NCBI RefSeq assembly: GCF_000485595.1
Contig: NW_014577178.1
Coordinates: 391,836-414,687 of the forward strand
Length of the DNA stretch: 22,852 nucleotides
Reading direction: 5' to 3'
From: Priapulus caudatus
Lineage: Eukaryota > Priapulida > Priapulimorpha > Priapulimorphida > Priapulidae
The notes beneath the pieces are model-generated. The model saw nothing but the letters and a program-made list of their open reading frames with translations, searched no databases and was not told where the DNA came from. Position 1 is the first letter of the stretch. Each line of letters opens with the position of its first letter. The position numbers and the translations under genes are program-made. Positions 1,406-22,328 of the stretch are shown in pieces.

Positions 1406-2023
1406 ATGGCTGCAAGTCAAGGATCCCCTAAAAGGGCATCGCCTGTAAAAGGTTCGCCGAAAAAGGTAGTGAAGAAGAGAAGACGATCGGGGTCCAAGGC
1501 AAAGAAAGCTACGCACCCAACGACTCTTGATATGGTTGTAGCTGCAATTCGTCAACTAAAGAACCCAAGAGGATCTTCAGCTCAAGCTATCCGCAGGTAT
1601 ATCTTGGCTACCTATAAGGTGGACGCCAACCGCGTAGGTGGCATGCTACGTCGCGCTTTCAAGGCTGGACTTGAAAAAGGAGCTATCGCCCGCCCGAAGG
1701 GTTCAACTGCAATTGGAGCAATTGGCCGATTCCGAGCCGCTAAGCCTGTACCCAAGCCAAAGGCCAAGAAGGCAGCACCAAAGAAGGCAAAGAAGCCTAG
1801 GGCAAAGAAAGCCGCAACACAAAAGAAGGCAAAAAAGCCCAGAGCAAAGAAAGCTGCCAAGTCTCCAAAGAAGGTAAAGAAAACTACCAAGAAAGCGAGT
1901 CCCAAGAAAGCAAAGAAACCTGTGAAGAAGGCCACTAAGCCAAAAGCAAAGAAGCCAGTGACAAAAAAGTCCAAGTCTGCTGCAGCCAAGAAGCCCAAGG
2001 CAAAGAAGACTGCGAAGAAGTAG
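1406..2023 (+). CDS. Linker histone H1, single exon, 205 aa
   Basis: Linker histones bind the nucleosome dyad and linker DNA and compact chromatin. The frame has three typical parts. Residues 1-35 are a basic tail with three SP-basic motifs (SPKR, SPVK, SPKK). Residues about 36-112 are the winged-helix globular domain, starting at HPTTLDMVVAAI and including GSSAQAIRRYI and the KGSTAIGAIGRF wing. The C-terminal tail from 113 is a run of KAKKP/KKA repeats with two SPKK motifs. Length and lysine/alanine/proline composition fit H1. The ATG is the first in frame after the TATA box. There is no intron, and a histone stem-loop follows 29 nt after the stop, so this is probably a replication-dependent gene. 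No core histone gene lies in the window. SP-basic repeats in the N-tail recall sperm-type H1s, but this does not prove germline use. Confidence 0.96.
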   Translation: MAASQGSPKRASPVKGSPKKVVKKRRRSGSKAKKATHPTTLDMVVAAIRQLKNPRGSSAQAIRRYILATYKVDANRVGGMLRRAFKAGLEKGAIARPKGSTAIGAIGRFRAAKPVPKPKAKKAAPKKAKKPRAKKAATQKKAKKPRAKKAAKSPKKVKKTTKKASPKKAKKPVKKATKPKAKKPVTKKSKSAAAKKPKAKKTAKK

Positions 2024-3949: not shown

Positions 3950-4001
3950 ATGAGGGTGGTCATAGCATATGCATTGTTACTGGTTGGCTGCTGTTGCTCG
4001 A
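3950..4001 (+). CDS. Mosaic gene, first coding exon: signal peptide (aa 1-17)
   Basis: ATG is the first in the exon that follows the acceptor at 3913. It encodes [17 protein letters not shown], a short basic N-terminus followed by a hydrophobic core and small residues, a standard secretion signal. Donor GTAAGT at 4002 leaves phase 1; the A carried over joins GC of the next exon to make Ser. Confidence 0.85.
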
Positions 4002-7000
4002 GTAAGTAAACGGCAATCTTTGATGATTACCAGAGTCAGGAAGTGAATACCATAAAGTACTGTGAACATTTTCTGTTTAGGTTTAGCTCAACTCTTGACC
4101 TCGATGCCTGTAGCGTGTAATTGCAACATGCACACCTCAGTTTGGTAGTACACAACAGCAGTGCTAATTTTACTATGTGTACGTTAGTTACACAACTATA
4201 AACTGTTTGGTTTTTCCCTCATTTTTTCAAATGAAATTATATTGTTCACAACGAATGTACATTTCCTACAAGCGACAGATGGAGATTCGCAAGAAGTGGA
4301 AAGCAGCGGGGTCATAAACCCCCTTTTTATGCTGATTTTACACACCAAAGTACATGTAGTATTATAAAATCGCACATTTGTAGTCAGAATGTTTCTAACG
4401 TTATATTTTTAAAGCTCGCAAGCGACCAGAATCCATACGGGTTGCAGTTGCACATTCCCGCAGACGTAGCGATTTTACAGCAATTTTTTTTACAGCGATT
4501 CACGAATCGCTATCAAGTTGCATGAAAAAATCGCAGGTCTGCGCTAGGCTTTTTCCTTTCGCATTCGCAAGACCCTACAGTTCTGATGTCCACAATTAAC
4601 TCTCAGACGAAGAAGTAGATCACTAAAACATATAATAGAATATATAGAGATTTACTCATGCAATATAACAAAACTGTTTTTTATGCATTTATTAATTATA
4701 TGTATTGTTGATGTTATCAAGGCGTGCATGCACTGCTACCATGGGAAGTAACGGGAAGAATTATGTACCAACCGAAAGCGGGTTCCTTTGCGCAAGAGTG
4801 CATCGAGAGGTATCACACAGCGATGACAGCACAGAACAACACACTCTCCAGAATCCTGGGGCAGGGGTGCGCTCAGGTATCTTCAGACATGAGAGTCACG
4901 TGGGCGGCACTCGATGTAAAGAAAATATCGGCCAACCAGGTATAATGGGATTAATTAATCAGCAAGTATCTCTTATTTATATTTGTATAAGCACATGGCA
5001 CGTACGGTCATGGTCTGATCCGTGTATTATCGTCACTGTGCTGCAAAATATGAAAACAAGTTCATATCATGATTACTCGTTAACAATGGCCCTTTATCGG
5101 CTACAAGGACCATCGCTCCGTTCGAACGCAAACAAAGTTTAGGTACTCGTGTCGGATATTTGCTTGGTGTTCAGATTCTGACCAGTTCCTGCAATAAATA
5201 CATAATGTATTGTTGCGACGCGAGGTAAAACGGCTCGTAGTGAGCTTGCGTGCGGGTGTCGGTGAGTGATCTGATGCGCCGCGAGTGCCCGACTTCCGTG
5301 TTGATTCATCGCGCGAATGGACATGCGTGGCACGACACAAACAATGACGGGTAGGGTGAGCAGCGCGAAACGCTAATCTGGGCGACCTACAGGAGGTTAC
5401 GCAGGTGCAAAGTTAACTAATCACAAGTCGCTGCTTCGGCCGATACATTACCTGCGTGCGACGGAGACAGATACAATGAGAACACATAGCCGACAGAGCT
5501 AGGTGTGTCAAACGAACCTCCCGAAATAGTCGAGCATTGGCCTAGTGCGCACGCTGTTATTCAATTGTTACCTACGTGTACATAGACGAATGCTGTTCTG
5601 CTCAGCGGGACGCTTCACGGATGATACTCGTGATATATTTTTCATTAATCACACTTATGTGGCGATGTGATTATCACGTCACTGGGGCGTTGTATAATAA
5701 TCAAAAAACGATCACTAATATATGTAGTAGCAGTGATATATTTTTGATATGGTACATATCTCTTGTGTTGTAGCTACTCTTCAAATACATTATCTATCTG
5801 AATGATGAGAGCGGCCCGGCGCCAGGTCCACTTGACCTGTTAGAGTCTTGTGCGAACAGCATCGCCAACATTCTTCCCGCCATCACCAGTAACGGTATCC
5901 CAGACCTTGGCAGGGGCTGTCCTAGTGTTGTGCCGACGGACAACCACTTTAGCTGGGGTACGGATACAGGCCCGGACAGTGAACAAGCACAAAGTGACAT
6001 CTTGATCATTCAAGATGCTCCACATCCAGGTAAATGTTCGCACAGGTCACGGGCGGGCTGGGCTATCACGCGTGACGCAATTTATACCGCGTAAGACTGA
6101 TTCCTGCTGTCCGTGTGCATAGACCCAAAACCTGTATTGACAAGTCTTGTTCGATAAAAAAATTACAGCGGTTACTTAGTAGATTCATGTGTATAAATGC
6201 AAACACTGCGGAATAACAGCCTCGCCACTGTGTCCTTTGTTCATTCAGACCTGAAGCTGAGTGCTCCTCCCCCAATCCCCGACAAACCGGCATTGAAAGC
6301 TTTTGCCGTGACCAGCGAAGGTCCCTCATTCAAAATGATTGGTACCGTGACGTACCGGTCGGAGAAAGACGTGCCCCACGCTTGCCTGGATGTGTACAGG
6401 AACGTCATTGGATCGAACAACAGGACCATTACCACGCAGCTTACGCAGGCTTGTCATACCCATTTGGATACCGTTATCTTCGCTGACCTGGAAGCAGAAA
6501 AGCGCTCATCGAAGCAGGTGTATATTAACCTTGTTTATCGCAATAAAGAAATTATTATGACGACGGCAGCAGAATAATACCGAGTCTCATGGAACCAAAT
6601 GCACTCGCAGCCCGAGGCTTATAAGCGCGCCTATAACTTATTATTTACCGCTATAAAAGCGTGATCTCAATTCCAGATTAAGTTGAGAGCGTTAATGCAG
6701 GTCATGTCATGTATATAACAATGACGAGTAAAACTCTCACGCTGGCTTTACCATTTAAAACTATTTTACGCGTTGAAATATTTGCATATCATTGAACTTC
6801 TTGTAATTTCGGGTTAATAGTACGATATTCTCCGTCACCAGGTGGAGCTTATCTACACGATTGTGCTCGACCACGAGTCCGTGGACGAATCTCAGTCCAT
6901 CCAGGATTGCGCCGACGTCTTGTTAAAGGAACTACCGTCGATCACGAACATCGTCATTCCAACGATCGCAGGGCGGTGCCCACCACTCCTACCTACACGC

Positions 7001-7260
7001 AATTCCTTCCACACGGAGTTTACAGGTAATTAACTGTGAAACGAAATTTCGGTAATACATCAAATTATCGCAGTTATTTTTGTCGTTTTGTGTACTGATT
7101 GTTTGTCCTAATATTTGTTTTGTAGATGTGGATAGCTGTCAGTCAAATCCATGTGAACATGGAAAATGTATTGACCGTATAAACTCTTACGAGTGCATCT
7201 GCGACCCTGGATGGGAGGGCCATAGCTGTAATACTAGTAAGTACCGTTATATAGTACATG

Positions 7261-7306
<46 letters not shown>

Positions 7307-7838
7307 ATTGTTATTATTATTATTTTTGTTAATTTATTATCATTACTTCTTCGAGCTCAGAATAGTGGTATACTTCACATATTGACATTCGGATTTCACT
7401 TTACTCTCATCAAAGAAATCTTAAATAATTAATTTGTCAACATAAATATTGTTGTTTAAATGTAATTATTTTATCAAATTAATGTAGGTGCCGTATTAGC
7501 AGACGCGAAAATAGAGTTCCTGGTGAGAATTTCAGGCAACGTATATCATAGATACAACAGGTCGCATGGGTAAATGTTAACTTCTTTGTTTTTGATATAC
7601 CTCAGATATTGACGACTGCACTCCTAACCCATGCGGGCACGGAACATGCCGGGATGCTGTCGGTGGCTTCATCTGCTCCTGTCAGGCTGGCTGGTCTGGA
7701 CCTACATGCAATGTTCATGGTAACACACATTGCCCTATGAAGGGTCGAAATACTAATTAATGATTGCCTAAACATGATTTTTCGGCTATATGCGCACCCA
7801 TGCCCGTGCATTCGCCTACCCACGCACGCACGCACACG

Positions 7839-7887
<49 letters not shown>

Positions 7888-10661
7888 CATATGTCATAAA
7901 GAAATTATATTGACTAAGGTAAAATACTTTGTTTATCTAGATGCCATCCCGCACAGTGACAACGAGATTAAGGGCACCCTTAGATACACCTCTGGGTCTA
8001 GGATCAGGCAGCGGTGTGCGAACATATACAACCGGTACATGGTGGCGCTCAACGGCACAGTAACCTCAGAACTGAACGGCTTATGCGGTTCTGGCATCGG
8101 TGTGACATGGCGCGCACTCGACGTGAAAAAGATATCGAGTACAGAGGTATGTTTTAACTCGCAAATATTAAACCTATTCTGCATACCCGATCTGCTTATG
8201 ATTAGACACGTCTGTTACATATAATCAAAATGATGTCATTTCCTTTAATCTCCAAGGAAGAGAATAATGTCTAACGAAATAAATAAATCCATTCAATGGA
8301 TTAATTATTAGTTCAATTGATTCATTATTGGTGGGTTATACGTTCATGTCTTCATTGAACATTTCTGCGCGGGGATATACACCTGAAGTATATACAACTG
8401 ATACACAGTATCGTTATTGATATATAGATATATATCGGTCAGTGGTGTAGTTATGGGGGGGGGGCAAAGGGGGCCATGGTCCCCCTTGTTGTTCCGAAAG
8501 TAAACAAAAATACAAAAATGAGAATTGTACTACTAAAATGAGAATTGTCGTAGTCAGAATGAAGGCTGTACATGTACTCAAAAGTGCCTCAAATACCATC
8601 TCCTGCAATTTACATTTTCAAAATTTTCTGAGGGTGGACCCCCATTATCCCCCGCCTGTTTTCACCCCACCTCCTTGGAATCCTGGATCCGTCACTGAAC
8701 AGTTACATATCTTGGGAGCAGAGAACACCGAACAAAAATGTCGCCTTTTTGCATGACGCCCAAAACAATGATAGCAGAGCTGAGAGGGTGTGGAGAGGGA
8801 GGTGGAAGAACCATTAACATATTAAGTTATCCACTATTTTGCGCAGTTTGCTGTTTTCCCCCCCACCCTGTTAAAAATCCTGGGTACGCCACTGATATCG
8901 GTGTTATTGCAGGTGTTGTTTTACTACACGTTTGACCTACGGTCGAGACTCACGCAGCTCGACGACTGCTTTGACACGCTTATTGACGCGCTGCCGAGGA
9001 CGACACGTGTAACCATCCCCGAACTCAACACTCGCTGCCCGGCCATCTTTCCCGGAGAGGCCTACTTTGCCAGGAAGGATCTACAGCTGAGGAGTGGAGA
9101 CGTCGTGCCTGTGGGAACCTGCACTGACTGTAATTTTGTTGTGTGTGATATGTAGTAGCGTATTAGGCTGCGAAAGCGCACAATTCGCGTCACACATTAC
9201 TATGTTCGCGAGCGATAACGTCACGCGAACTCAGTCATGATGTTTTAATAATATTTACAAGTATATGATCAGCATTCAAAATGTTCAGAATAGCACAAAA
9301 GTTTACTTTCGTATAGCACTCGCTAGTGCTGATGCAACTCATACCATTGCGTACATATATTAGTAATGTATGTTTATTTATTTTTATGAAGGTAACTGTA
9401 AGACGGGTACATTCATGAGCTCTACTGCGTGTGTCAAATGCCCTCGTGGAACATACCAAGATGAGGCAAAGCAGACCACGTGCAAGAAATGCAGCGGTGG
9501 CACCTACACGTTCACAGAGGGCAGCACTAACGTGAATGACTGCATACGTACGTTGTCTAGATATTATTTTCAATACTCTTTTGTGAAAGCCCATGTAATT
9601 CATATTCGTGAAATTTTGTCCACTATCTGAACTTCAAATCTCGGGTTTACTGTCTTACGTAATAAAGTGACCACTTTTCGACATTACGTTCTGTGCGCTC
9701 TACTGCGCCACTTAAACAAGGGAAATCGCGTTACTTTTATCGTTGATCGATAACGGTGAATCAAAATCACGCGCTATTTTGCTTAATATGGCAAAACCGC
9801 ACATGCGCATCACGCCGACCCATCGAAATAGTGCACGTAGTCTCCCATTGGCTATCGGCATTCCATTGGCTATCATGCTTCGGATGTCGAACATGTTTGA
9901 AATGGCATAGAACGTCATTGTTAGTATTCTTGTTAATTTAATTAAAGATAAAATAATGTATGCAATAAAAGAGTTTATATTTCACTGTTTGAAATGCCGT
10001 GTGATAGTGACTTGTTCGTACGTTTTATGAAAAAACGTAACGGTTTGCCAATGACCATTATGTACTTCAACAAATGTTTCGCTCTTTTAGAGCTCTGCGA
10101 ACCTGGTACATATTCGGATAACGGCATGCCAATCTGCCTACCATGCCCGATTCACAATTACGCTCCGTTGCACGGATCAACTGAATGTTTGAAATGCCCT
10201 ACCCGTACCTACACAGCTACAACGGGATCATCTAAGTGCGCGTGTAAGTGGTATTTATTTTGCACTTGTTTAGCATTAGTTTTTTTCCGCGTTAATCGAA
10301 ACAAGGAACTGGGAACAAGTGTGTAAATATTCATACAAATAACGCGTTTTTTTATTTAGTAGTCATCAATATCAATAATAATTAATATTAACGGACCTTG
10401 TTCACCATGTTATCTCTACAGTGCCGTGCAATTCTGGATATTACTCCGAGTCCGGGCTGGAGCCCTGTAAGCCATGCCCACCTAACTTCTACCAGAACAT
10501 TGCTGGTAGCGGTGTGTGCAAGGAATGCCCCCATCTAACAACGACATCGGGCAGGACTGCCTCGTTTAGCATCGCACAGTGTTTCATGGGTACGTCAATT
10601 GTTTCGAACTATCATGATCCCGACTGAAACATCGTTGGCTCTCGTCAGATTTCATTATATA

Positions 10662-10707
<46 letters not shown>

Positions 10708-12471
10708 ATACACGACTGTACTTCTCCAGCACTGTGAGGTTTAAATGAAACCATCGCTTTCATTTACAGATGGCAATTTCAACGACTTGTGGGCCAACCC
10801 GGATCCAACAAGCGAGGTGCCACCTCTTAAAGGAGACAACGGGTTCGGCGTGGTGATGCAGCACTACACCACTAGCTCACTCGATTTCTGCCGCCTGCGA
10901 TGCCAAGAGAGGGATTTCCCGATATGCGTCGGTGTTGACTTCAAGCCCGGATATGGATGCGATCTCCTAAGCATGCGTCTGCTATATACAGATGATCACT
11001 TGTACAAATCGAACGAGCCTGTACTCCGTAACTTTGGTACGTTGACAGTGTTTTTTCACGGTGGAATTATATTGGAGCTAATATGTAGGAATTTATCATA
11101 AACAAAGTTCGTTTTATAGCAGCTTAGCTCCCGATGTACCGAGGCGCTATGTAGGTCGTGAAACATATTAAAAAAATAATAAAATAATAAAATTAGACTA
11201 CAGTGATTTTACGTTCCCCAATAGCACAAAAATCTCAATATATTTTTTTTTTAAAGATTAGTATCTCTAATAACCGTTTCACTGTAGATGGAGGCTACTT
11301 CTGCTCCAAGGGTGAGGTAAATCTGCAGTGCAGTAACTCCAATGAGGTCTTGTCGCTACATCAAGTGAGATTCGTCAACATAAGCGAGTACTCGTGGGCG
11401 AATGTTTGCGAAGCGAAGAGGTACAGAGGCGATGCATGTCATGTCGGAGAAATCGTCGATGCTATACGAGCTAACTGCGTAGGCGAGCGAAGCTGTACTT
11501 TCGAGAACCCTTGCCAGGACACGACGATGTACGCGGAAATTGCCATGGATTGTGTTGGTAAGATTTTTTATGCATATTTAAATTAACCCTGTAATCGTTT
11601 TAACTCGTATAAATAATAATTAATCATGCTCACCTCGTATACACTGTACGTTATAATTTGTTATTCCTCGTCCGAATATCTGTACCGTAGTCAAATATGT
11701 TTGATGACATCACTGATCGAGATGATGCCCGTTTCTCTATTACAGCTGATCCATGCCATGATCACGTCTGTCAGAATGGAGGGTCCTGCTACCCAGGCAA
11801 CCACGAAGGTTATTGCGAATGTACTGAAGGTTTTGGTGGAAACGAATGTCAATACGAAACAGACATTTGTATCAGAAATCCTTGTGGCGACAGTGGATTC
11901 TGCATTATTCTTAACGAAGACGAGTACGTCTGCGAATGCAAGCCCGGTAGGTGGCGACAGTATATGGTAATAAAACGCGCGCATCTGTCACTCTGCTACG
12001 AGGCAGTGAAACGAGAATGTGTTATGGAAAAAAGAGGAAACTAAATATTATCAGTGTGAAACTATAATGTGTGCATAAAAATACGGAAGTGAACTTTATC
12101 AGTGCTATATAAACAACACGGCGTAGTAAACGGCTAAAATTTAGATTCGGCACGTGCGCACAAACGCTAAAGCTATTTATGATACATTTCACTAGAATAA
12201 TAAGCATTTTCATCATTGCGCAATATTTACGCAGGACATGATGGCGAACATTGCGAGAACCACGTCGACTATTGTGCCGAACATGATTGTGCGTTCGGCA
12301 GCTGCATCAGCAAAGACGATGGCTACATCTGCGAATGTCAGGACGGCTTCATCGGAGAATTGTAAGTGAATGCCTCGATTTACATATATCGCTGGCAGCA
12401 CTTCACTAACCGCTCACGTGAATCCTGGTTGTAACTGTTAAAATATAGACGGAGTGCCATATTTTGCTCAC

Positions 12472-12502
<31 letters not shown>

Positions 12503-12838
12503 CATTATCATTAATATTTGCGTGTTCTTTCCAGTTGCGACCAAAACGTTGACATGTGCGCCAATAATCCCTGCAAACATGGGGGAAGTTGCGAGGGACG
12601 CCCTCTAGCACGATATGTGTGTTATTGCACGAAGGGCTGGGAAGGCGACACATGCGAGACAGCGGCTAGAGGAAACGCAGCAGGAAAAACACGCGATCGA
12701 TTGCAAGACGCCGGTCGTTCTCTCAGCCCTAAAAATGTCATTTTTACGGAAGAAAAGGGAACCCGTGACGCTGAGCAAAACTCTGGTCGTAATAGCAATC
12801 GTAATGCTGACCGGGACAATAAGAATGAAGAGGAAGAA

Positions 12839-12874
<36 letters not shown>

Positions 12875-15800
12875 AGAGAACCAGAAGACAGTATGTACTA
12901 AAAAGATTTTGTTTGTGTAGCTATTACGTTTGTATAATATGGACAGAAGCAACATTAAATAACTGAATTAATTATGCGATATCCTAACTGTTAGAAAATA
13001 TTTGCATTTCAATGCGTTTTTAAGATGATAATGGTGGTGGTAATTAATCTATCACGTCTGACTAATCTTTTCCTTTCGGTTTTTAGGAAGATGTCCTCCA
13101 GGACATTTCTCGCATACGGGTCAGAAGCCATGTAGGAGATGCCCCTTAGAAACATTCCTGCCTGTACCTGGAGGAATCCAGTGCCTAGCATGTCCACGTG
13201 GAATGTTTGCCGATAGGCCTGGGTCAGCTAAGTGCTATCGTAAGTTAACTATCCCGTTAAAAAGGGATTTCGTGCTGCAGTATACGCGCAATATTCATGA
13301 TTCTCATGCCTGTTATACTGTAATAAATTGTTGCTTTTCATTTCCTCCCTTTCAGCTCCTTGCAGTGTTGGCTTCTTTTCTGACAACGGGCTTGCTCCTT
13401 GCCAGCCTTGTCCGCAGCACTACTTCCAGAATCGCCCTGGTCAGACTTTCTGTCGCGAATGTCCACCATTGACGACTGCCGCCTTGGAGGGAGCGTTCAG
13501 TGTTGCTCAGTGCTACGTCAGTAAGTAAACCTCATCAAATCTGCACTGTCCTCGCGTACTCGCCGCTAAACTCAACCCGCGAGGAAATTACTCTCGGGAA
13601 CGATGTAAATATTACCATGGGTCGCTAACAGAACTATTCAGCTAAATTATTTCCCCGCTATAAACGTGCTCGTAACGCGATGGACCAAACATTATATAAT
13701 GTTACATTCATCAACTAAAATTCAGATAAAAACACACTGCATCAAAAGCACAAGCTGAACTTTGAACGGTAAAATTTATGTCCGTTTATCCGCTGCAAGT
13801 CTACCGAAAGTGTATATTCACTCTGTACTCGTTGCAGACCGCAGATTTAGCCCGGTGTGGGTTAATACGGAGCAGCCAATTCCGGTGCCTCCCGCCGAAT
13901 TCGATCAAGGTTTCGGCGTCGTCATTGCGCACTATAACACAACCTCGCGCGACTTCTGCGTGCTCAAGTGCCAGGAGCGCAACTTCCCCGTCTGCATCGG
14001 CGTAGACTTTCGCGAGGGTTACGGCTGCGACCTACTCAGCATGCGTTTACGCTACACGACCAATTATCCATTCGTCAGCATTGCGCAGCCCATGTTCAGA
14101 AGCTTCGGTGAGTCAGTGAGTGCCCACCCCCGTGGGAGTGCTGTTGTGCCTGTTGATTACCTTCTATTATACGCAGTTCTGACATGTCCGCCCACACACC
14201 CATCTATACTTACCGCGCCAAATTATTTGTTGTTGTAGTCGCTCCGTATTCGCCACAATACAACTCTGGTAGTTATGCCCTGCATAGTTTACAGCCCGTG
14301 CCAGTCTGTTACCATTCACTCGTAGCGAACGGTTTTTTCCTAACTACAGCCATAAAATCTAACCTAGTGACACTTCACCGCCGTCATTTTAGCCTCCAAA
14401 TTATACGTCATTACGAGAGGCTATGTTATTATCATGTATCAAATATAGGTGTTCTTGGTTGAATAATGAGTTCAGTGACTCTATATACTCTATACCAGTG
14501 TATATTGTTACTGGTGGAACAGTTTATCTCGATAGCAGAATGTCTTTTTTTACATTCAATTTGACCAAAATAGTCAGCATAATTAATAGCACAACAAAGT
14601 GGATTTAGTTCAGCGGCGGAAACATCTCAAAATCACGTTAACGTGGACGAATTTCTTTCAGTGGGCGGATACTACTGCAGCGACAAAGAGATAAATCTAA
14701 AGTGTGACAAACCTAACGAAATCATGGCTCTCAACTCTCTCCGGTTGATAGACGCATATAAGTACTCTTGGGTGAATATATCCTGCTCCGACAGTTTATA
14801 CAACGGGCCTGTGTGTAATGTGCAAGAAATGGCGTCACAGGTACGTAAGCGTTTAGTGTATGGTATACCATTTTCTGTAAAGCGGTGTCGTAGGAGCTCA
14901 CCGAAAGCCGCCAATTATTACTTTACATGCGAGTACAAATCGACGGCTATTATATTTATTTATAATTTTTCACAAAAAAATGTACAAAAATTGCTTTGAA
15001 AATAACGCGTTACAAAATTCCATCGTTGGCTGTGTAGAAACCCGGCGCCATTTATATATAAAATGAAAAAAAAATATGGCAAAAAACCTGCGCTGTCTAA
15101 ATACAAGAACATCCAGCGCTTTCTCTGTAAAACTCCGCGCTTTCTATATAAAAAAAAACGTCCCGCGCTTTCTATGTGAAAAATCCTGCGCTCTCCATGT
15201 AAAAAGATCTTGCATTTTCCGTATAAAATGTTTCCGATGTGTAAATAATCCCGCGCTTTCTACATGAAAATACACCCGGCGCTTTCCACCCAACAGGTGA
15301 TGGGCGAGTGTAACGGAAAGCATGAATGCACGCTCGTGAATCCGTGCGTCGACACGTCCAAGTTCACCGAACTCGGCATGGACTGCTTGGCGAACCCCTG
15401 CTTCCAGTCGCCGTGCCAGAAGGGCGGCATATGTCACATCGGTCGGCACGGCGCCGAGTGTGAGTGTCCGCCGGGCACGCAGGGCGAGTTCTGCGAGTTC
15501 CGACGACAGTCGCGACAACAGTTCGCTCCGATCAATCCGTGTGTGCAGAACCCCTGCTTCAACGGCGGCCAGTGTGTCTACCTCGCCGGCAGCGACTACG
15601 TTTGCCAGTGCCCTGATAGTACGTAACATGCGACCAATCTCTCGCGTATTACGTGTGTATCGCACGATCGTTATGATATTGTGACGTTACACCTTCAAGT
15701 GTAAAGCACCCTGACGAAATATTATCGGCACTTACGTGAAATCTAAGCAGATTTGTAAAACTAAAGCAAAAACACGTGTTTTTAAAATTGTTCAGTGTCG

Positions 15801-18496
15801 CTAGGCACGTTATCGGGCACATTTTCAGCTGTGAATGCACGCACTTGCGCGTGCACTTGTGTGCACAGCCGCACAGGTGCACAGTACGTGCGCTTATACA
15901 GACGCATAGGCGCGTTTACAGGCGCACAATGTGCGCGTGCACACAAGCATACAATACGTGTCCGCGCAGCTAGACATTACGTGCTTTCAATGCATATGTT
16001 TTAGTGCTTCGCATAGCAATTCATGTGTTTTACTCTGCAATGTACGTTTTGCTTTCCCACCAGACTGGTTCGGTAGCCGATGTGAGTCGGATGGATGTGA
16101 CAACCGATGCGAGCATGGACACTGCAGAGTTGAGACGCTGCGCGGCCTCGTGGGATACACATGCGAGTGCGAATCCGGCTGGAACGGAGAGTAGTAAGTA
16201 GCAATAATAATCCCCAAAGGCCCCATTAACCCACTTATCGTCGCTCGTATACTTCAGTCAAGGCTACATTATTTACTACAAGGTCATACATATTTCAGTA
16301 TCTATTTGGTATCATGAATGGCTCATCTACGTAAATAATTTAATTTCGTCTACAAATACGCAATCTATCGATTTTCATTTTCTATCATCACTAGTACTGT
16401 ACGTACTAAACTATCACGAGCGCAGGAGCATAACGATGACGAGTATATTCGCCTATTGCAGCTGCCACCTGAGGGCCTCCGATGATCCTTGTCTGAACCA
16501 ACCCTGTCAGCATAGCGGTTTGTGCAACGCCGCGCCGCGTGGAGAATACAACTGTAGTTGTCTGTTCCCTTGGACTGGCAAAAGCTGCGAAATACATCGT
16601 TGTAAGTAACTAGTAACCAGCGTACAAATCGCATAGTGTGCATAGCGTACGTTCGAATTGTGTAAACACACTGATGATCTGTGATAGAAAATCGACTCAG
16701 TAAAACTGTACCACGTTAGCCTTAATCGTTTACATAAATAACAGTAACATTTTGTATTGTGTTTGGCAGATGCGGCAAGAGCACCAGTGTCACCATACCT
16801 ACATAGTCGATATAATCTTCCGCTGGGATTCTTCTTCGGCCAGCCAACACCGGCGCAGTCCACCGATGCACAGCAGCCAATAGATTTGCGTAGTCAGGCA
16901 ATAAATCTACAGCCAGATCGATTAGCTCAAGGACTGCTGAGACAAGGCAGTAAGCATCAAGCGTCAGCTTCGCGACGAGGACCTCAACAGGCAGCTTTTA
17001 TTAACCAGCAAAATCAGCCACCAATAAGACAGATCCTATCGCAAGGACCACAGCAACAAGGGCTTCCTAGCCAACCACAAGATGCCAGACAAGAACTTTT
17101 AGTATCACAACAGGGGCCTCTTCAACAACGGCCACTGCAACAAGGACCACTGCAACAAGGCCCACTACAACAAGGGTCACTGCAACAAGGACCACTACAA
17201 CAAGGGCCACTGCAACAAGGACCACTGCAACAAGGGCCACTGCAACAAGGGCCACTGCAACAAGGGCCACTGCAACAAGGGCCACTACAACGAGGACCTC
17301 CACAGCAAGTACCTCTGCAGCAAGGACGGCAACTGCAACAGGAATTATTTTATCAACAACAGGGAGAAGGGCGATCAAGGCAAGTCTCACAGCAAGGACC
17401 ACAGCAGCAAAGCTTCCCCAGCCAACCACCATCGACTGTAGTATCACAACAGGGACGTCCGCAGCAAAGACCCGTGCAGCAGGGACAGCAACCGCAGCGG
17501 GAATTGTTTTACCAACAGCAAGCAGAAGGACAATCAGGACAGGTCACCCAGCAAGAATCACAGCAGCAAACCTTTCCCAGTCAACCACTAGAGGGTCGGG
17601 TATCACTACAAGGACCTCCGCAACAGGTACTTCAGCAGCAAGGACGGCAGTCGCAAGGTATCTCTAACCAACCACAGAGAGCTGAACAGAATGGTCGAGT
17701 ATCACCACAAGAACGTCAACAGCAAGGTCGCCAGCTGTCGCGAGAACTATTTTATCAGCTGCAGGGTGAAGACCAATCAAGACAGGTCTCCCAACGTGGA
17801 CCGCAGCAGCAAGGCCTCACCAGCAAACAACAGATTGTGGGGCAAGCGAGAGAAATTCCTTTCCCGGGAATACCAGCACAAAGCCAGACATCCGGATTTC
17901 CTACTTCGCTCCAGAATCCTCCTCGCCTAGCTAACCAGCCACAAGGTCTACCACAGCTTGGGGCGCAGCAACGTTTTGCTCAAAGACTCAGAGAATTGCA
18001 ACAACAGTCGCCTTACCCGCAACCTGTATTTGTTCAGAAAGGAAGAAACGGCCGCCAAGACGCAGTTCGAGGACCTAGCCTCAGCTTGGCGCAGCTACCT
18101 GACGACGATTTACCTCACACGGACATAGCGCGAGTTCCGACAGTCATTCTGCAAACAGACAGCCAACAGCAAACGAAAGCTGCCGCGGGACGAACCGACG
18201 TACACGAACTACGCAGTAATGTATCACAGATAGTCAGCTATCCGTCGCCAATCCCTGCATTTGTATTTGACAATCACCCGAACAATTACGACGAGAAGGA
18301 TGAGGAATATGATGAGAGCCGTGTAGAGTACAATGGGCCGCTTGGCATGTGGAGCACCTGGAGTGAGTGGTCGGACTGCTCGCCATGCGGAGGTTGTGGC
18401 AAAAAGACCCGCGCGCGGGTGTGCTCAACCAATAACTGCCTGTAAGCTATAGTATAAATACTATATATTTTTCATTATACATATGAATATTATATG

Positions 18497-18568
<72 letters not shown>

Positions 18569-19366
18569 TACGTGCGTGCGTGCGTGCGTGCGTGCGTGCG
18601 AGGGCGTATGTGTGTGTATATATTACTATGGCGACTTTTATTGTAAATGATAAAGTGCTTTATCGTAACCTCGCTATTCATACAATGAATTTGTGGGCAA
18701 TGGTCGAGTAACTAGCTACATCGATTTATGTCATTTTTGCATACGCACAACGTAGCCCATTGTCACATTTCCATTCAAACTTGATTTTAACTTGTCTATA
18801 TATATCTACTAGTAATATTTTCTTCTACTACTACTATTCTTTTTGCAGAGGTGAGGCCATGGAGGAGACTATCTGTCAGAGTGCGCCGTGCTATCAGAGT
18901 ATTTATGGCGATTGTGATCTCTATAAGGGAGCTTGGTAAGTATGAAAGTCCATTACCGCCAAAACCCACCTATTTTAATCGCGCTTAAAATGTATTTTAA
19001 GCGCGATTGAATTCCAGCCAATCAGAACAGTGGTTTTTAATCGCAATTAAAATAGATTTTAAGCGCGATTAAATTCCAGTCAATCAGAACAGTGGTTTTT
19101 AATCGCGATTAATGAGATTTTAAACGCGATAAGCACGAGTGCGCGCGTTCTCTTGTGTATGTGCGCATGAGCGTGCATGCCTTCAGTGTTTATCCCGTTG
19201 ATATGTGGACAATGTAGGCAAGGAAAAAAACCGTTAAATGCTGAAAATGATCTTATCGTTTAATTCTGTTTTCGATCACAGGCGATCGAGATTCTGCCGA
19301 CCAAGCTGCTGCAAGAATTACTTCTATCACCCGACACTGAGGCAGTGTATGCGCAGAATGGTGTAG
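3950..19366 (+). CDS. Secreted multidomain EGF/SUEL-lectin/TSP1 mosaic protein (27 coding exons, 2175 aa)
   Basis: Whole-gene model. Coding segments: 3950-4001, 4722-4939, 5774-6029, 6249-6517, 6842-7025, 7126-7236, 7606-7719, 7941-8146, 8913-9129, 9392-9547, 10091-10243, 10422-10589, 10770-11036, 11288-11557, 11746-11946, 12235-12361, 12535-12890, 13087-13239, 13356-13520, 13838-14107, 14662-14840, 15297-15618, 16064-16193, 16462-16601, 16770-18441, 18849-18935, 19282-19366. All junctions are GT-AG, every phase agrees, and the total is 6528 nt including TAG. Most introns are phase 1, typical of shuffled extracellular modules. Order: signal peptide; four-Cys domain x2; EGF x2; four-Cys domain; ephrin-receptor-like x3; PAN-like; SUEL lectin; EGF x4; acidic linker; ephrin-receptor-like x2; PAN-like; SUEL; EGF x4; Q-rich; TSP1; Cys tail. 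There is no transmembrane segment, so the protein is probably secreted into matrix or coat. I recognise no named orthologue. The end of exon 9129 is the least certain junction. Confidence 0.85.
4002..4721 (+). other. Intron after the signal-peptide exon
   Basis: AT-rich intron of 720 bp. Around 4420-4580 it has several GCGATT/AATCGC words in both orientations (for example CAGCGATTCACGAATCGCT near 4493-4511), suggesting a decayed palindromic repeat. No gene or RNA is seen. Confidence 0.6.
4722..4939 (+). CDS. Mosaic gene exon: four-Cys domain copy 1, first half (aa 18-90)
   Basis: Encodes the N-terminal half of an unrecognised domain. The landmarks are VTGRIMY, a helix-like stretch with the first Cys (AQECIERYH), a second Cys (GQGC), then [16 protein letters not shown]. 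The same landmarks recur at 6249-6517 and 7941-8146. It enters in phase 1 after a weak acceptor (GTTATCAAG) and leaves in phase 0 at CAG/GTATAA. Paralogy with the other copies supports the exon despite the weak acceptor. Confidence 0.8.
4940..5773 (+). other. Intron splitting four-Cys domain copy 1
   Basis: An 834-bp phase-0 intron. It includes a CpG-richer part (about 5215-5480), but I see no gene, RNA or defined repeat in it. It ends in the acceptor TTGTGTTGTAG. Confidence 0.6.
5774..6029 (+). CDS. Mosaic gene exon: four-Cys domain copy 1, second half (aa 91-175)
   Basis: Opens with [11 protein letters not shown] (strand-like), then a helix with Cys ([16 protein letters not shown]), then [16 protein letters not shown], which carries the fourth Cys. 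Aligns with exons 6842-7025 and 8913-9129. After the domain it adds an acidic, Ser/Asp/Gln-containing linker to about residue 175. Phase 0 in, phase 1 out (CCAG/GTAAAT). Confidence 0.85.
6249..6517 (+). CDS. Mosaic gene exon: four-Cys domain copy 2, first half (aa 176-265)
   Basis: Starts with a proline-rich linker ([10 protein letters not shown]), then the repeat: [11 protein letters not shown], first Cys in [10 protein letters not shown], second Cys in LTQAC, and a strand [15 protein letters not shown] corresponding to [13 protein letters not shown] of copy 1. Phase 1 in (ATTCAG/AC), phase 0 out (GCAG/GTGTAT). The frame runs on into the intron, so the donor is placed by homology and phase. 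Confidence 0.85.
6518..6841 (+). other. Intron splitting four-Cys domain copy 2
   Basis: A 324-bp AT-rich phase-0 intron, at the same point in the domain as the introns at 4940-5773 and 8147-8912. Nothing else is seen in it. Confidence 0.7.
6842..7025 (+). CDS. Mosaic gene exon: four-Cys domain copy 2, second half (aa 266-326)
   Basis: [13 protein letters not shown], then the helix with Cys ([13 protein letters not shown]), then [14 protein letters not shown] with the fourth Cys. Matches the second halves of copies 1 and 3. Acceptor CACCAG, donor ACAG/GTAATT, phase 0 in and phase 1 out. Confidence 0.88.
7126..7236 (+). CDS. Mosaic gene exon: EGF-like domain 1, calcium-binding type (aa 327-363)
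   Basis: Six cysteines in EGF spacing, from [15 protein letters not shown] to GWEGHSC. The D-x-D start and the C-x-D-x4-Y-x-C pattern ([10 protein letters not shown]) fit calcium-binding EGFs with the Asp/Asn hydroxylation motif. Phase 1-1 exon, the usual shuffling unit, with donor CTA/GTAAGT. Confidence 0.93.
7237..7605 (+). other. Intron with (TTA)n microsatellite
   Basis: Between the first two EGF exons. A (TTA)n tract with a small interruption covers about 7263-7324; the rest is AT-rich with nothing else seen. Confidence 0.85.
7606..7719 (+). CDS. Mosaic gene exon: EGF-like domain 2, calcium-binding type (aa 364-401)
   Basis: Six cysteines from [15 protein letters not shown] to [17 protein letters not shown] fits the C-x-D-x4-F-x-C hydroxylation pattern. 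Phase 1-1. Lies between copies 2 and 3 of the four-Cys domain. Confidence 0.93.
7821..7886. repeat. (CACG)n then (TA)n microsatellite in intron
   Basis: A short CACG-rich run (7821-7838) passes into an uninterrupted TA tract (7841-7886), inside the intron before four-Cys domain copy 3. Confidence 0.95.
7941..8146 (+). CDS. Mosaic gene exon: four-Cys domain copy 3, first half (aa 402-470)
   Basis: [13 protein letters not shown], first Cys in [15 protein letters not shown], second Cys in LNGLCGSG, then [16 protein letters not shown]. The last segment is almost identical to copy 1 ([15 protein letters not shown]). Phase 1 in (TCTAG/AT), phase 0 out (AGAG/GTATGT). Confidence 0.9.
8440..8894. mobile_element. 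hAT-like non-autonomous DNA transposon (MITE), 455 bp
   Basis: The left end reads CAGTGGTGTAGTTATGG; the right end read in reverse complement is CAGTGGCGTACCCAGG, so the terminal inverted repeats match at 9 of the first 10 bases. The element is flanked by a perfect 8-bp direct repeat ATATCGGT (8432-8439 and 8895-8902). An 8-bp target duplication with CA...TG ends is typical of hAT elements. There is no transposase; the G-rich left and C-rich right sub-termini are low complexity. A second 3'-end-like sequence (CCTGGATCCGTCACTG, 8682-8697) lies inside, so the element is composite or internally duplicated. It sits in the intron of four-Cys domain copy 3. Confidence 0.85.
8913..9129 (+). CDS. Mosaic gene exon: four-Cys domain copy 3, second half (aa 471-542)
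   Basis: [13 protein letters not shown], helix with Cys ([13 protein letters not shown]), then [16 protein letters not shown] with the fourth Cys, then a linker ending with two cysteines (GTCTDC). Phase 0 in. The donor is uncertain: GTAATT at 9130 gives the needed phase 1 and joins to NCKTGTF; GTGATA slightly downstream also gives phase 1. The acceptor is only 18 nt after the end of a MITE. Confidence 0.78.
9392..9547 (+). CDS. Mosaic gene exon: ephrin-receptor-like (GCC2/GCC3) module 1 (aa 543-594)
   Basis: Pattern [20 protein letters not shown], then [16 protein letters not shown], then NDC. The repeated C-x-x-G-T-[FY] and C-x-x-C-P motifs are those of the GCC2/GCC3 (ephrin-receptor-like) family, also seen in SVEP1 and SCUBE proteins. 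Phase 1-1. Confidence 0.85.
9548..10090 (+). other. Intron between ephrin-receptor-like modules 1 and 2
   Basis: A 543-bp AT-rich intron with a direct repeat around 9840-9875 (CCCATTGGCTATCGGCATT then CCATTGGCTATCATGC). No gene or RNA is seen. Acceptor GCTCTTTTAG. Confidence 0.65.
10091..10243 (+). CDS. Mosaic gene exon: ephrin-receptor-like module 2 (aa 595-645)
   Basis: [19 protein letters not shown], then [19 protein letters not shown], then SSKCA. Full GCC2/GCC3 cysteine spacing. Phase 1-1, donor GTAAGT at 10244. Confidence 0.9.
10422..10589 (+). CDS. Mosaic gene exon: ephrin-receptor-like module 3 (aa 646-701)
   Basis: [36 protein letters not shown], ending FSIAQCFM. Its paralogue is the exon at 13356-13520, which has the same NFYQN/HYFQN and FS(I/V)AQC signatures. 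Phase 1-1. Confidence 0.9.
10656..10705. repeat. (TA)n microsatellite in intron
   Basis: A TA dinucleotide tract with one small interruption, inside the intron before the PAN-like exon. Confidence 0.95.
10770..11036 (+). CDS. Mosaic gene exon: PAN/apple-like domain 1 (aa 702-790)
   Basis: The core is [20 protein letters not shown], then [20 protein letters not shown], with four cysteines spaced C-x3-C-x6-C-x11-C. This resembles the helix and following strands of PAN/apple domains, which bind protein or carbohydrate. The fit is by eye and partial: only the central cysteines of an apple fold are present. The exon at 13838-14107 is a close paralogue, sharing VGVDF/IGVDF and [11 protein letters not shown]. 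Phase 1-1. Confidence 0.7.
11037..11287 (+). other. Short AT-rich intron
   Basis: Contains an A-rich AATAATAAAA tract near 11170-11195. Acceptor TTTCACTGTAG. Nothing else is seen. Confidence 0.6.
11288..11557 (+). CDS. Mosaic gene exon: SUEL-type (galactose/rhamnose-binding) lectin domain 1 (aa 791-880)
   Basis: Begins [15 protein letters not shown] and ends [20 protein letters not shown] followed by AMDC. The Cys-rich start, the C-x-G-x-x-S-C segment, the NPC-x-D-T loop and the final strand ending in Cys are hallmarks of SUEL / Gal_lectin domains. The usual YGR sugar-contact motif near the start is not seen, so sugar specificity may differ or be lost. The whole domain is one phase 1-1 exon, unlike its paralogue at 14662-15618. 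Confidence 0.85.
11746..11946 (+). CDS. Mosaic gene exon: EGF-like domains 3 and most of 4 (aa 881-947)
   Basis: First [18 protein letters not shown] to [15 protein letters not shown]. Second: [14 protein letters not shown] to EYVCECKPG, whose last Cys is in the next exon (GEHC). Phase 1 in and phase 1 out. This layout matches the exon pair 15297-15618 and 16064-16193. Confidence 0.9.
12235..12361 (+). CDS. Mosaic gene exon: end of EGF 4 and EGF 5 (aa 948-989)
   Basis: GHDGEHC completes EGF 4; [14 protein letters not shown] to [14 protein letters not shown] is EGF 5, whose final Cys is the first Cys codon of the next exon. Leaves in phase 2 (GAATT/GTAAGT), as does the paralogous exon at 16064-16193. 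Confidence 0.9.
12474..12502. repeat. (TTA)n microsatellite in intron
   Basis: Trinucleotide tract about 30 nt before the acceptor of exon 12535-12890; the pyrimidine tract TTCTTTCCAG remains intact between them. Confidence 0.95.
12535..12890 (+). CDS. Mosaic gene exon: EGF 6 and a charged linker with a poly-Glu run (aa 990-1108)
   Basis: FC completes EGF 5; [15 protein letters not shown] to [10 protein letters not shown] is EGF 6. About 75 residues of linker follow: basic and Asn-rich ([14 protein letters not shown]), then about 16 consecutive Glu encoded by a (GAA/GAG) tract at about 12829-12872. Donor A/GTATGT at 12891 gives the phase 1 needed by the next exon. The linker could be shortened by an alternative donor, but I see no better one. 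Confidence 0.85.
13087..13239 (+). CDS. Mosaic gene exon: ephrin-receptor-like module 4 (aa 1109-1159)
   Basis: [20 protein letters not shown], then [20 protein letters not shown], then SAKCYR. Standard GCC2/GCC3 spacing; starts the second copy of the duplicated block. Phase 1-1. Confidence 0.92.
13356..13520 (+). CDS. Mosaic gene exon: ephrin-receptor-like module 5 (aa 1160-1214)
   Basis: [36 protein letters not shown], ending FSVAQCYV. Close paralogue of exon 10422-10589. Phase 1-1, donor GTAAGT. Confidence 0.92.
13521..13837 (+). other. Intron before PAN-like domain 2
   Basis: A 317-bp AT-rich intron; nothing recognisable. Acceptor CTCGTTGCAG. Confidence 0.65.
13838..14107 (+). CDS. Mosaic gene exon: PAN/apple-like domain 2 (aa 1215-1304)
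   Basis: Core [20 protein letters not shown], then [20 protein letters not shown], with the same four-Cys spacing as exon 10770-11036. Higher GC than its paralogue. Phase 1-1, donor GTGAGT. Confidence 0.72.
14108..14661 (+). other. Intron before SUEL domain 2
   Basis: A 554-bp intron. Open frames extend into it (14184-14462, 14423-14608) but they have no domain character. Nothing else is seen. Confidence 0.6.
14662..14840 (+). CDS. Mosaic gene exon: SUEL-type lectin domain 2, first part (aa 1305-1364)
   Basis: [20 protein letters not shown], then [16 protein letters not shown] and [12 protein letters not shown], aligning with residues 791 onward of the first SUEL domain. Leaves in phase 0 (CAG/GTACGT), an intron absent from the first SUEL copy. 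Confidence 0.88.
15041..15294. repeat. Degenerate minisatellite filling the intron up to the acceptor
   Basis: About eight imperfect units of roughly 22-27 bp share a CCGCGCTTTCTATGTAAAAA-like core (for example 15140-15165, 15163-15187, 15250-15274). The last unit, CCGGCGCTTTCCACCCAACAG, supplies the pyrimidine tract and AG (15295-15296) of the next exon. Confidence 0.8.
15297..15618 (+). CDS. Mosaic gene exon: end of SUEL domain 2, EGF 7 and most of EGF 8 (aa 1365-1471)
   Basis: Starts [20 protein letters not shown] and ends the lectin with GMDC. Then EGF 7 ([13 protein letters not shown] to GTQGEFCEF) and EGF 8 ([13 protein letters not shown] to DYVCQCPD), whose last Cys is in the next exon. 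Marked GC-richness compared with the flanking introns. Phase 0 in, phase 1 out (GATA/GTACGT). Confidence 0.9.
15619..16063 (+). other. Intron with a GTGCAC-rich alternating tract
   Basis: At about 15835-15955 the intron is a run of GTGCAC, GCGCACA and TGCGCGTGCA words, alternating purine-pyrimidine and not a simple dinucleotide repeat. Otherwise AT-rich. Acceptor TTTCCCACCAG. Confidence 0.75.
16064..16193 (+). CDS. Mosaic gene exon: end of EGF 8 and EGF 9 (aa 1472-1514)
   Basis: WFGSRC completes EGF 8; [12 protein letters not shown] to [13 protein letters not shown] is EGF 9, closed by the first Cys of the next exon. The donor must fall at GAGTA/GTAAGT (phase 2), since reading on gives TAG. 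The same phase is used in the paralogous exon 12235-12361. Confidence 0.9.
16462..16601 (+). CDS. Mosaic gene exon: EGF 10 (aa 1515-1561)
   Basis: [20 protein letters not shown] to [17 protein letters not shown]. The first Cys completes EGF 9. Phase 2 in (CTATTGCAG/C), phase 1 out (CGTT/GTAAGT). Last EGF of the protein. Confidence 0.9.
16770..18441 (+). CDS. Mosaic gene exon: glutamine-rich repeat region and start of TSP1 (aa 1562-2118)
   Basis: A single 1672-nt exon. Residues about 1675-1750 contain a pentapeptide repeat GPLQQ (15-nt unit, about a dozen copies, 17115-17300). Three longer units follow, each with a [GR]xxLxxELFYQxQ-type core ([30 protein letters not shown]), then Q(V)xQ and SQP/SKQ. 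After about 18000 comes a less repetitive, acidic stretch ([20 protein letters not shown]), then the TSP1 start [20 protein letters not shown]-rich secreted proteins can be structural or transglutaminase-cross-linked, but that is inference. Phase 1 in, phase 2 out (GCCT/GTAAGC). The frame has no stop over 557 codons, which supports it strongly. Confidence 0.9.
17112..17310 (+). repeat. 15-bp coding tandem repeat (GPLQQ)n
   Basis: Units such as GGGCCACTGCAACAA repeat about 12-13 times with few substitutions, mostly synonymous (GGG/GGA/GGC, CTG/CTA). This near-identity points to recent expansion by slippage or unequal exchange. Confidence 0.95.
18442..18848 (+). other. Intron splitting TSP1, with (TG)n(CGTG)n tract
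   Basis: A compound TG then CGTG microsatellite spans about 18496-18620, alternating purine-pyrimidine and likely able to form Z-DNA. The rest is AT-rich. Acceptor CTTTTTGCAG; the adjacent second AG (18849-18850) would break the frame. Confidence 0.9.
18849..18935 (+). CDS. Mosaic gene exon: end of TSP1 and start of C-terminal tail (aa 2119-2147)
   Basis: [14 protein letters not shown] closes the thrombospondin type 1 domain begun at the end of the Q-rich exon; together they give W-x-x-W-x-x-W, C-x-x-C-x-x-C and the later CSTNNC and final two Cys. Then [15 protein letters not shown] begins a tail. Phase 2 in and out (CTTG/GTAAGT). Confidence 0.9.
18971..19131. repeat. Tandem 62-bp repeat containing a palindrome
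   Basis: About 2.5 copies of a 62-bp unit in the penultimate intron. Each holds AATCGCGCTTAAAAT then its reverse complement ATTTTAAGCGCGATT two bases later (perfect 15-bp arms at 18977-18991 and 18994-19008; later copies are imperfect), followed by CCAGCCAATCAGAACAGTGG. Could be a tandem array of a small foldback element. Confidence 0.85.
19282..19366 (+). CDS. Mosaic gene terminal coding exon: Cys-rich C-terminus (aa 2148-2175)
   Basis: [20 protein letters not shown] then QCMRRMV and TAG at 19364-19366. With the previous exon the tail after TSP1 has five cysteines (GDC, RFC, SCC, QC). I do not recognise it as a named domain; it may form a small disulfide knot. Acceptor GATCACAG, phase 2. 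Confidence 0.85.
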
Positions 19367-21409: not shown

Positions 21410-21932
21410 ATGGACGCTTTCATAGGAAACGGGATGAAATTAATCATCCTAATTTCGATTCTCGGTGAGTGTGTTGAAACATTTGATGCATCACGCCTTA
21501 ACAGGCGTAAATGATTTATTCGGAAATCATAATTTGTACGCGTGATATAATTTCCATGGCATTTATAGCACAGGTATACGTGTTTGCGTTAAGATTCAGT
21601 AGACAATGCCACGCAGCCGTCGCTAGCTTTAACAGTTCCGTTTGATACATTACATATATAGTCAGTATAGACTATAATAATAATATAATATAATACACTC
21701 TAATAATAAGATATTAACGCGACAAGTAACTGTTATTCGGGTTTCTCTTCTGTAGTGCACGCATCCTATTACTACCTAATACTGGCACTCTTCTGTTCAT
21801 GGTTGGCACACTGCCATACTGTGCCATTGCTGTGCCATGCCTGTGCCATATCATACCTGTGCCATTCATGTTTGATGAGATGCTATTCCACCGAAATTTT
21901 ATCACGCTAATGAAATGTTTCGTTCACCTTTG

Positions 21933-21974
<42 letters not shown>

Positions 21975-22275
21975 GTCGCTCCGTCGATCGCCATCAACCT
22001 TCTCGATGCGGATATTGATGAAATCCAATGTGACGTCACCGTGGCTCGCTACAAGGAACACAGGCACTGTAATAAGTACTACGAATGCGTGCATAATATC
22101 TACCTAGAGCGATACTGTCCTTTCGCCACCGTTTGGAATCTGTACTGCCCGATGGCAGGCCGATGCGACATCGCCACAGAGGAGCAGCTTATTAGCTGTA
22201 CGATCAAGGATTATTCGCCTTCCGTGGCACCAGAGCGGTACTACAACTGGACCTCTACCGCCCCTCGCATACCTG
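21410..22275 (+). CDS. Secreted chitin-binding type 2 (CBM14/peritrophin-A) protein, 5' part
   Basis: Two coding exons: 21410-21464 and 21973-22275, joined in phase 1; donor G/GTGAGT, acceptor ATATAG/TC. Exon 1 gives MDAFIGNGMKLIILISIL, a signal peptide; a second ATG (codon 9, MKLIILISIL) could equally start it. Exon 2 starts VVAPSIAINLLDADIDEIQC and holds CNKYYECVHN, ERYCPFATVWNLYC and RCDIATEEQLISC, the six-Cys CBM14 pattern with aromatic YY before the central Cys. After the domain comes a Ser/Thr/Pro segment, cut by another phase 1 donor (CCTG/GTGAGC at 22276). Later exons lie beyond the window. CBM14 domains bind chitin in cuticle, peritrophic or shell matrices and in chitinases; which applies here is unknown. 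Confidence 0.85.
21465..21972 (+). other. Intron ending in an (AT)n tract
   Basis: At 21809-21864 there are four to five tandem TGTGCCAT words. A (TA)n tract at 21937-21970 runs directly into the AG at 21971-21972, so there is no pyrimidine tract immediately before the acceptor. Confidence 0.8.
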
Positions 22276-22328
22276 GTGAGCGAGCAGTGTCTCTTCTCCG
22301 TAGTCCATAGCCTTCGCCCATGTATCGT

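What the first reader, a model, noticed from the sequence alone, without database searches (positions are those of the whole stretch)
4722..9129. Unnamed four-cysteine domain, present three times and always split by a phase-0 intron at the same site
Six exons pair into three copies (aa 18-160, 190-326, 402-530). Each first half has a strand, a helix with Cys (ECIERY, ACLDVY, RCANIY), a second Cys (GQGC, TQAC, GLCG) and an LDVKKIS-like strand. Each second half has a strand, a helix with Cys (SCANSI, DCADVL, DCFDTL) and an IP...CP-hydrophobic-hydrophobic-P end. The implied beta-alpha-beta-beta-alpha-beta order, two similar halves and two likely disulfides suggest a ferredoxin-like fold, somewhat like SEA domains, but with cysteines that SEA lacks. 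I do not recognise it as a named family.
Basis: partly seen in the sequence, partly recalled or inferred. Interest (0 to 1): 0.8.

Follow-up and report, generated by a model that had tools for sequence, protein, structure and literature searches.

The report
Unnamed four-cysteine extracellular protein domain
A large, probably secreted animal protein carries three copies of a small domain, each built from two similar exon-encoded halves with the same cysteine spacing, that the family and protein databases searched did not recognise; it may fold like the SEA domains of mucins, and its job is unknown but most likely structural or adhesive.

Summary
A 27-exon model (3950-19366, + strand, 2175 aa, probably secreted) contains three homologous modules (28-33% identity, E 7e-15 to 5e-20; 0 of 1000 shuffles per pair). 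Each is two exons split by a phase-0 intron at one alignment column, with phase-1 outer borders.

No Pfam family matches at E <= 10 (an agrin SEA control matches). Three protein-database searches found no relative of the modules, nor did contig scans. In the host genome only this gene's half-exons match; a paralogue's upstream stretch is unreadable.

Folding could be tried only with the intron read through: a low-confidence beta-alpha-beta-beta-alpha-beta model (pLDDT 56, best of five; third strand intron-encoded), resembling ferredoxin-like domains. A SEA-like fold is likely, not shown. Best reading: a new, apparently lineage-restricted, disulfide-stapled SEA-like module of an extracellular matrix or adhesive protein.

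The parts
3950..4001 (+). first coding exon, signal-peptide-like, ends in phase 1
   Evidence: gene model and hydropathy peak, windows starting at aa 3-5
4722..4939 (+). module D1, first half (CX22C, NNT sequon)
5774..6029 (+). module D1, second half (CX22C) plus linker
6249..6517 (+). linker and module D2, first half (CX22C, NRT sequon)
6842..7025 (+). module D2, second half (CX22C)
7126..7719 (+). two EGF-like domains (exons 7126-7236, 7606-7719)
   Evidence: Pfam EGF/hEGF
7941..8146 (+). module D3, first half (CX22C, NGT sequon)
8913..9129 (+). module D3, second half (CX22C), plus a short tail with one more Cys
9392..10589 (+). three Ephrin_rec_like repeats (exons 9392-9547, 10091-10243, 10422-10589)
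   Evidence: Pfam PF07699, E 1.2e-27, 3 stretches
10770..11557 (+). unnamed 89-aa PAN-like stretch (10770-11036; likeness recalled, no Pfam match at E <= 1) and SUEL-lectin-like exon (11288-11557; 22.1 bits, below the Pfam cut-off of 31.4)
11746..19366 (+). rest of the gene: EGF-like domains, second block with two Ephrin_rec_like, PAN-like and SUEL-like parts (the last two by similarity to the first copies), glutamine-rich repeat exon, TSP1, Cys-rich end, stop
   Evidence: gene model; Pfam; similarity; stop position

Best explanation
The three copies are one new extracellular domain family, here called the double CX22C module. Each module has two homologous or convergently similar halves of the type strand, helix or helical hairpin with CX22C, strand. 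The halves meet in a beta hairpin, where the gene has its phase-0 intron, and together form a compact ferredoxin-like, SEA-like sandwich. Most likely each half is stapled by its own disulfide across its helices, and the first half carries an N-glycan at the helix-helix turn. The hairpin corresponds to the loop at which SEA domains are cut, but no G-SVVV motif is present, so the module is probably an uncut, disulfide-stabilised spacer or binding unit. The modules sit at the start of a secreted mosaic protein with EGF, Ephrin_rec_like, SUEL-lectin-like, glutamine-rich and TSP1 parts, which most likely works in extracellular matrix, mucus or adhesion. Shown: copies, intron register and phases (on a sequence-derived gene model), CX22C, sequons, domain order, absence of named relatives in the searches made. 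Inferred: fold, disulfide pairing, glycosylation, secretion, function.
Against: Model confidence is low (mean pLDDT 56, pTM 0.44; the other four models 35.7-38.0), and its third strand is made of intron residues while the true third strand was drawn as part of a helix with pLDDT below 50. The second half alone gave only a helix at pLDDT 51. Foldseek had 0 of 919 listed matches at E <= 0.001, and its top rank is a protease at E 0.005 with rmsd 23.5. No sequence link to SEA: no Pfam SEA hit and no meaningful hhalign match to a three-sequence SEA set (P 0.19 over 14 columns). Half-to-half similarity may partly be shared helix periodicity (offsets -4, -3 and +4 come next), and the profile comparison of halves is not significant. 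No expression or biochemical data.
Confidence: 0.55

Rival explanations
1. The module is a diverged member of the SEA superfamily by descent, which lost the autoproteolysis motif and gained four cysteines, in line with the divergent SEA domains known in other surface proteins. (This overlaps with the best explanation; it differs on origin.)
For: Strand-helix-strand-strand-helix-strand order in the model and ferredoxin-like matches, including Nup54; extracellular mosaic setting with EGF domains; SEA domains keep the fold despite low sequence conservation (PMC6586460, passages).
Against: No Pfam SEA match at E <= 10 while an agrin SEA control scores 2.4e-14; no G-SVVV at the hairpin; a half-repeat with CX22C is not known to me from SEA (recalled).
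Confidence: 0.3
2. It is an unrelated new fold made by duplication of a small strand-helix-helix-strand unit with a CX22C staple; the SEA likeness is only the common ferredoxin-like arrangement. (Overlaps with the best explanation; differs on origin.)
For: Equal CX22C in 6 of 6 halves and half-to-half similarity in register; no relative of the modules in the searches made.
Against: Exon phases 1-0 and 0-1 of the two halves do not allow simple tandem exon duplication, so the intron must be later or the duplication older; the profile comparison of halves is not significant; the low-confidence model is ferredoxin-like.
Confidence: 0.25
3. It is a known domain type that is too diverged here to be recognised, or known in lineages that are absent from the searched sets.
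For: The protein search needs shared exact 5-residue words and a length window, and no orthologue of this protein turned up in it.
Against: Pfam, PDB sequence and protein searches gave no credible match for the modules.
Confidence: 0.25
4. The exons are a mis-assembled or chance gene model.
For: No transcript evidence in hand; exon borders were chosen by eye.
Against: Three copies conserve frame, splice position, four cysteines and a sequon at about 30% identity.
Confidence: 0.02

Closest known systems
SEA domain (Pfam PF01390; mucins, agrin)
   Same: probable ferredoxin-like order of strands and helices, similar length, extracellular mosaic proteins with EGF domains; hairpin 2-3 is the notable site in both
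   Different: no Pfam match, no autoproteolysis motif, four helix-associated cysteines in two CX22C pairs; modules are N-terminal in a protein without a later membrane-like segment
MUC16 SEA domains
   Same: tandem SEA copies with a conserved disulfide (PMC12143179, passages)
   Different: MUC16's bond joins strands 2 and 3; here the strands of the hairpin have no cysteine
SEA-like domains without autoproteolysis (Notch heterodimerisation domain, EpCAM C-terminal domain; Nup54 by a cited title and the fold search)
   Same: SEA-like fold without self-cleavage motif (Notch, EpCAM: passages); Nup54's ferredoxin-like domain appears weakly in the fold search
   Different: no sequence similarity detected in the Pfam and PDB sequence searches; EpCAM's domain has no cysteines

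Membership tests
SEA domain (PF01390) | match to the Pfam profile | tested here: not met
   0 families at E <= 10 for D1, D2, D3 and a typed consensus; agrin SEA control E 2.4e-14
SEA domain (PF01390) | ferredoxin-like alpha/beta sandwich | tested here: inconclusive
   low-confidence model with intron residues
SEA domain (PF01390) | G-SVVV-type autoproteolysis site between strands 2 and 3 (absent from some SEA-like domains) | tested here: not met
   sequences at the exon junction are ISANQ-LLFKY, SSKQ-VELIY, ISSTE-VLFYY; feature
MUC16-type SEA | disulfide between strands 2 and 3 | tested here: not met
   the aligned modules hold only the four Cys columns, none in the hairpin strands; feature from PMC12143179. 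Strand positions are predicted
Internal two-fold repeat with CX22C | same cysteine spacing and in-register similarity in both halves | tested here: met
   (6 of 6 halves; 0 of 2000 permutations); profile comparison not significant (P 0.07)
SEA-like domains of Notch/EpCAM type | juxtamembrane position | tested here: not met
   modules are N-terminal; highest 19-residue hydropathy after the signal-like stretch is 1.2

The most novel reading that the evidence does not exclude
A domain family new to the databases, built from two CX22C half-repeats that fold into one glycosylated, disulfide-stapled sandwich, and confined to one poorly sampled animal lineage, where it serves a secreted adhesive or matrix protein.
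Probability: 0.4. Interest if true: 0.55.

Novelty: new variant of a known kind. Interest (0 to 1): 0.42.

Why it matters
Unnamed domains in secreted mosaic proteins are where lineage-specific matrix, mucus and adhesive biology hides. Three copies within one gene, each with a half-repeat, give a clean seed for a new family profile and a test of whether SEA-like sandwiches can arise by duplication of a smaller disulfide-stapled unit.

Tried and rejected
Pfam on D1-D3, consensus and flanks: no match for the modules. PDB sequence search with D1 (two matches, E 1.6 and 2.2) and with the three-copy profile (four matches; the best, a phosphopantetheine adenylyltransferase at E 0.021, covers 61 positions and is taken as chance; the others are E 0.72 to 1.3). 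Protein database: 676 candidates, none at E <= 10; 5 hits among 7248 candidates, covering 8-15% of the query; one carries a Pfam SEA domain, but one search shows that the significant alignments of all five fall on the EGF pair and that the modules alone reach no better than E 0.9; 980 candidates, none. Bacterial/archaeal contigs and viral contigs: 173 and 41 pattern matches, 0 confirmed. SEA family in the host genome by exon: 0, but the search also rang in no control, so it does not show absence. Exon-duplication origin of the halves: disfavoured by the phases. Cross-half disulfides that would lock the two halves: possible, not preferred. First alignment for folding (A2) put first halves on second halves and was dropped for A3. 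Module profile against the open frames of the paralogous stretch: no hit better than 4.9 bits, taken as noise. Papers: eight searches listed, by titles and starts of abstracts, no description of this domain (one search listed 20 of 49); passages of PMC6586460, PMC6954182, PMC12143179 and PMC7349879 were read, none in full; Pei and Grishin 2017 was seen only as a citation.

Full report
Observation. The window holds one long + strand gene. Reading splice sites from the sequence by eye gives 27 coding exons from 3950 to the stop ending at 19366, with GT-AG at all 26 introns, and a protein of 2175 aa. It starts with a hydrophobic signal-like stretch; from aa 20 on no 19-residue window exceeds a hydropathy of 1.21, so I take it as secreted. 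Order: module D1, module D2, two EGF, module D3, three Ephrin_rec_like, an unnamed PAN-like stretch, SUEL-lectin-like (below the Pfam cut-off), several EGF, a second block with two Ephrin_rec_like, PAN-like and SUEL-like parts, more EGF, a glutamine-rich repeat exon, TSP1 and a Cys-rich end (Pfam; the second PAN-like and SUEL-like parts by similarity to the first; PAN-like is my recalled likeness and has no Pfam match).

The three modules are real copies: E 7.3e-15 (D1-D2), 5.4e-20 (D1-D3), 6.7e-17 (D2-D3), 28 to 33% identity, 0 of 1000 shuffles for each pair. Their internal intron is phase 0 at one alignment column; the module borders are phase 1. The exon lengths leave 2 and 1 modulo 3 in each pair, so one half cannot be skipped without a frameshift while a whole module can (lengths).

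What was missed. Each of the six halves, as aligned, has exactly two cysteines, and the spacer is 22 residues in 6 of 6; the D3 exon pair codes one more Cys in its tail (aa 540). Aligned on these, first and second halves resemble each other with the Cys columns left out: score -54 against a mean of -283, sd 63, 0 of 2000 joint column permutations, best of 13 offsets. Offsets -3, +4 and -4 come next, so helix periodicity explains part of it. A gapped shuffle test gives 3 of 500; profile comparison of the halves is not significant but puts both Cys in register (P 0.07, probability 0.5%). The N-x-T of the first half is invariant; 3 of the protein's 8 sequons are these.

Known relatives. None found by sequence: Pfam 0 at E <= 10, with agrin SEA as working control; PDB sequences without a credible match; three searches of 5.8 billion proteins without a relative of the modules, limited by word sharing and length windows (the five hits match the EGF pair); bacterial/archaeal and viral contigs none. 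In the host genome (385 Mb, 2952 contigs) the single copies and a consensus find only the half-exons of this gene; the consensus finds all six halves and nothing else at E <= 10 (only 4-7 first-look candidates are scored per search). A paralogue of the Ephrin_rec_like/PAN-like/SUEL-like/EGF part lies on contig C83; its upstream stretch is unreadable, so modules there cannot be excluded.

Mechanism. I take the module as a disulfide-stapled, glycosylated, SEA-like sandwich whose two halves are joined at the hairpin where SEA domains are cut in mucin-1, Notch2 and GPR126 (PMC6954182 passages). There is no G-SVVV, so no self-cleavage is expected. Three such units open a probably secreted mosaic protein with lectin-like, EGF and glutamine-rich parts, which suggests a matrix, mucus or adhesive role. 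Function is inferred from architecture only.

Verdict. Observation confirmed; interpretation partly supported. I do not file it as SEA: the profile test and the self-cleavage motif were not met and the fold is inconclusive. It may still work like one.

Noticed in passing
window 10770-11036 and 13838-14107: An ~89-aa stretch with four cysteines, no Pfam match, twice in the gene (55% identical) and again, in two exon pieces, on contig C83, each time before a SUEL-lectin-like exon; a second unnamed domain.
   Followed up: partly
host genome contig C83, about 611185-620390 (loci L025, L026): Paralogous gene with Ephrin_rec_like, PAN-like, SUEL-like and EGF parts; its upstream part is unreadable.
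   Followed up: partly
window 16770-18441: One long exon codes a glutamine-rich region with 10 LQQGP/LQQGS repeats, reminiscent of adhesive or cement proteins (recalled).
   Followed up: no
window 12535-12890: EGF exon runs on into a run of 16 glutamates encoded by a GAA/GAG repeat.
   Followed up: no
window 1406-2023: Intronless 205-aa ORF that reads like histone H1 (identification recalled; ORF checked).
   Followed up: no
window 21411-22276: Start of a further gene with a signal-like stretch and a chitin-binding-like Cys pattern (recalled, no call).
   Followed up: no
window 4940-5773, 6518-6841 and 8147-8912: The internal introns of D1 and D2 are 834 and 324 bases, both multiples of three (D2's contains stop codons); D3's intron is 766 bases.
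   Followed up: partly
window 18849-19366: Cys-rich C-terminus after TSP1 (CRPSCC motif), PLAC-like by recall only; only TSP1 above the Pfam cut-off there.
   Followed up: partly
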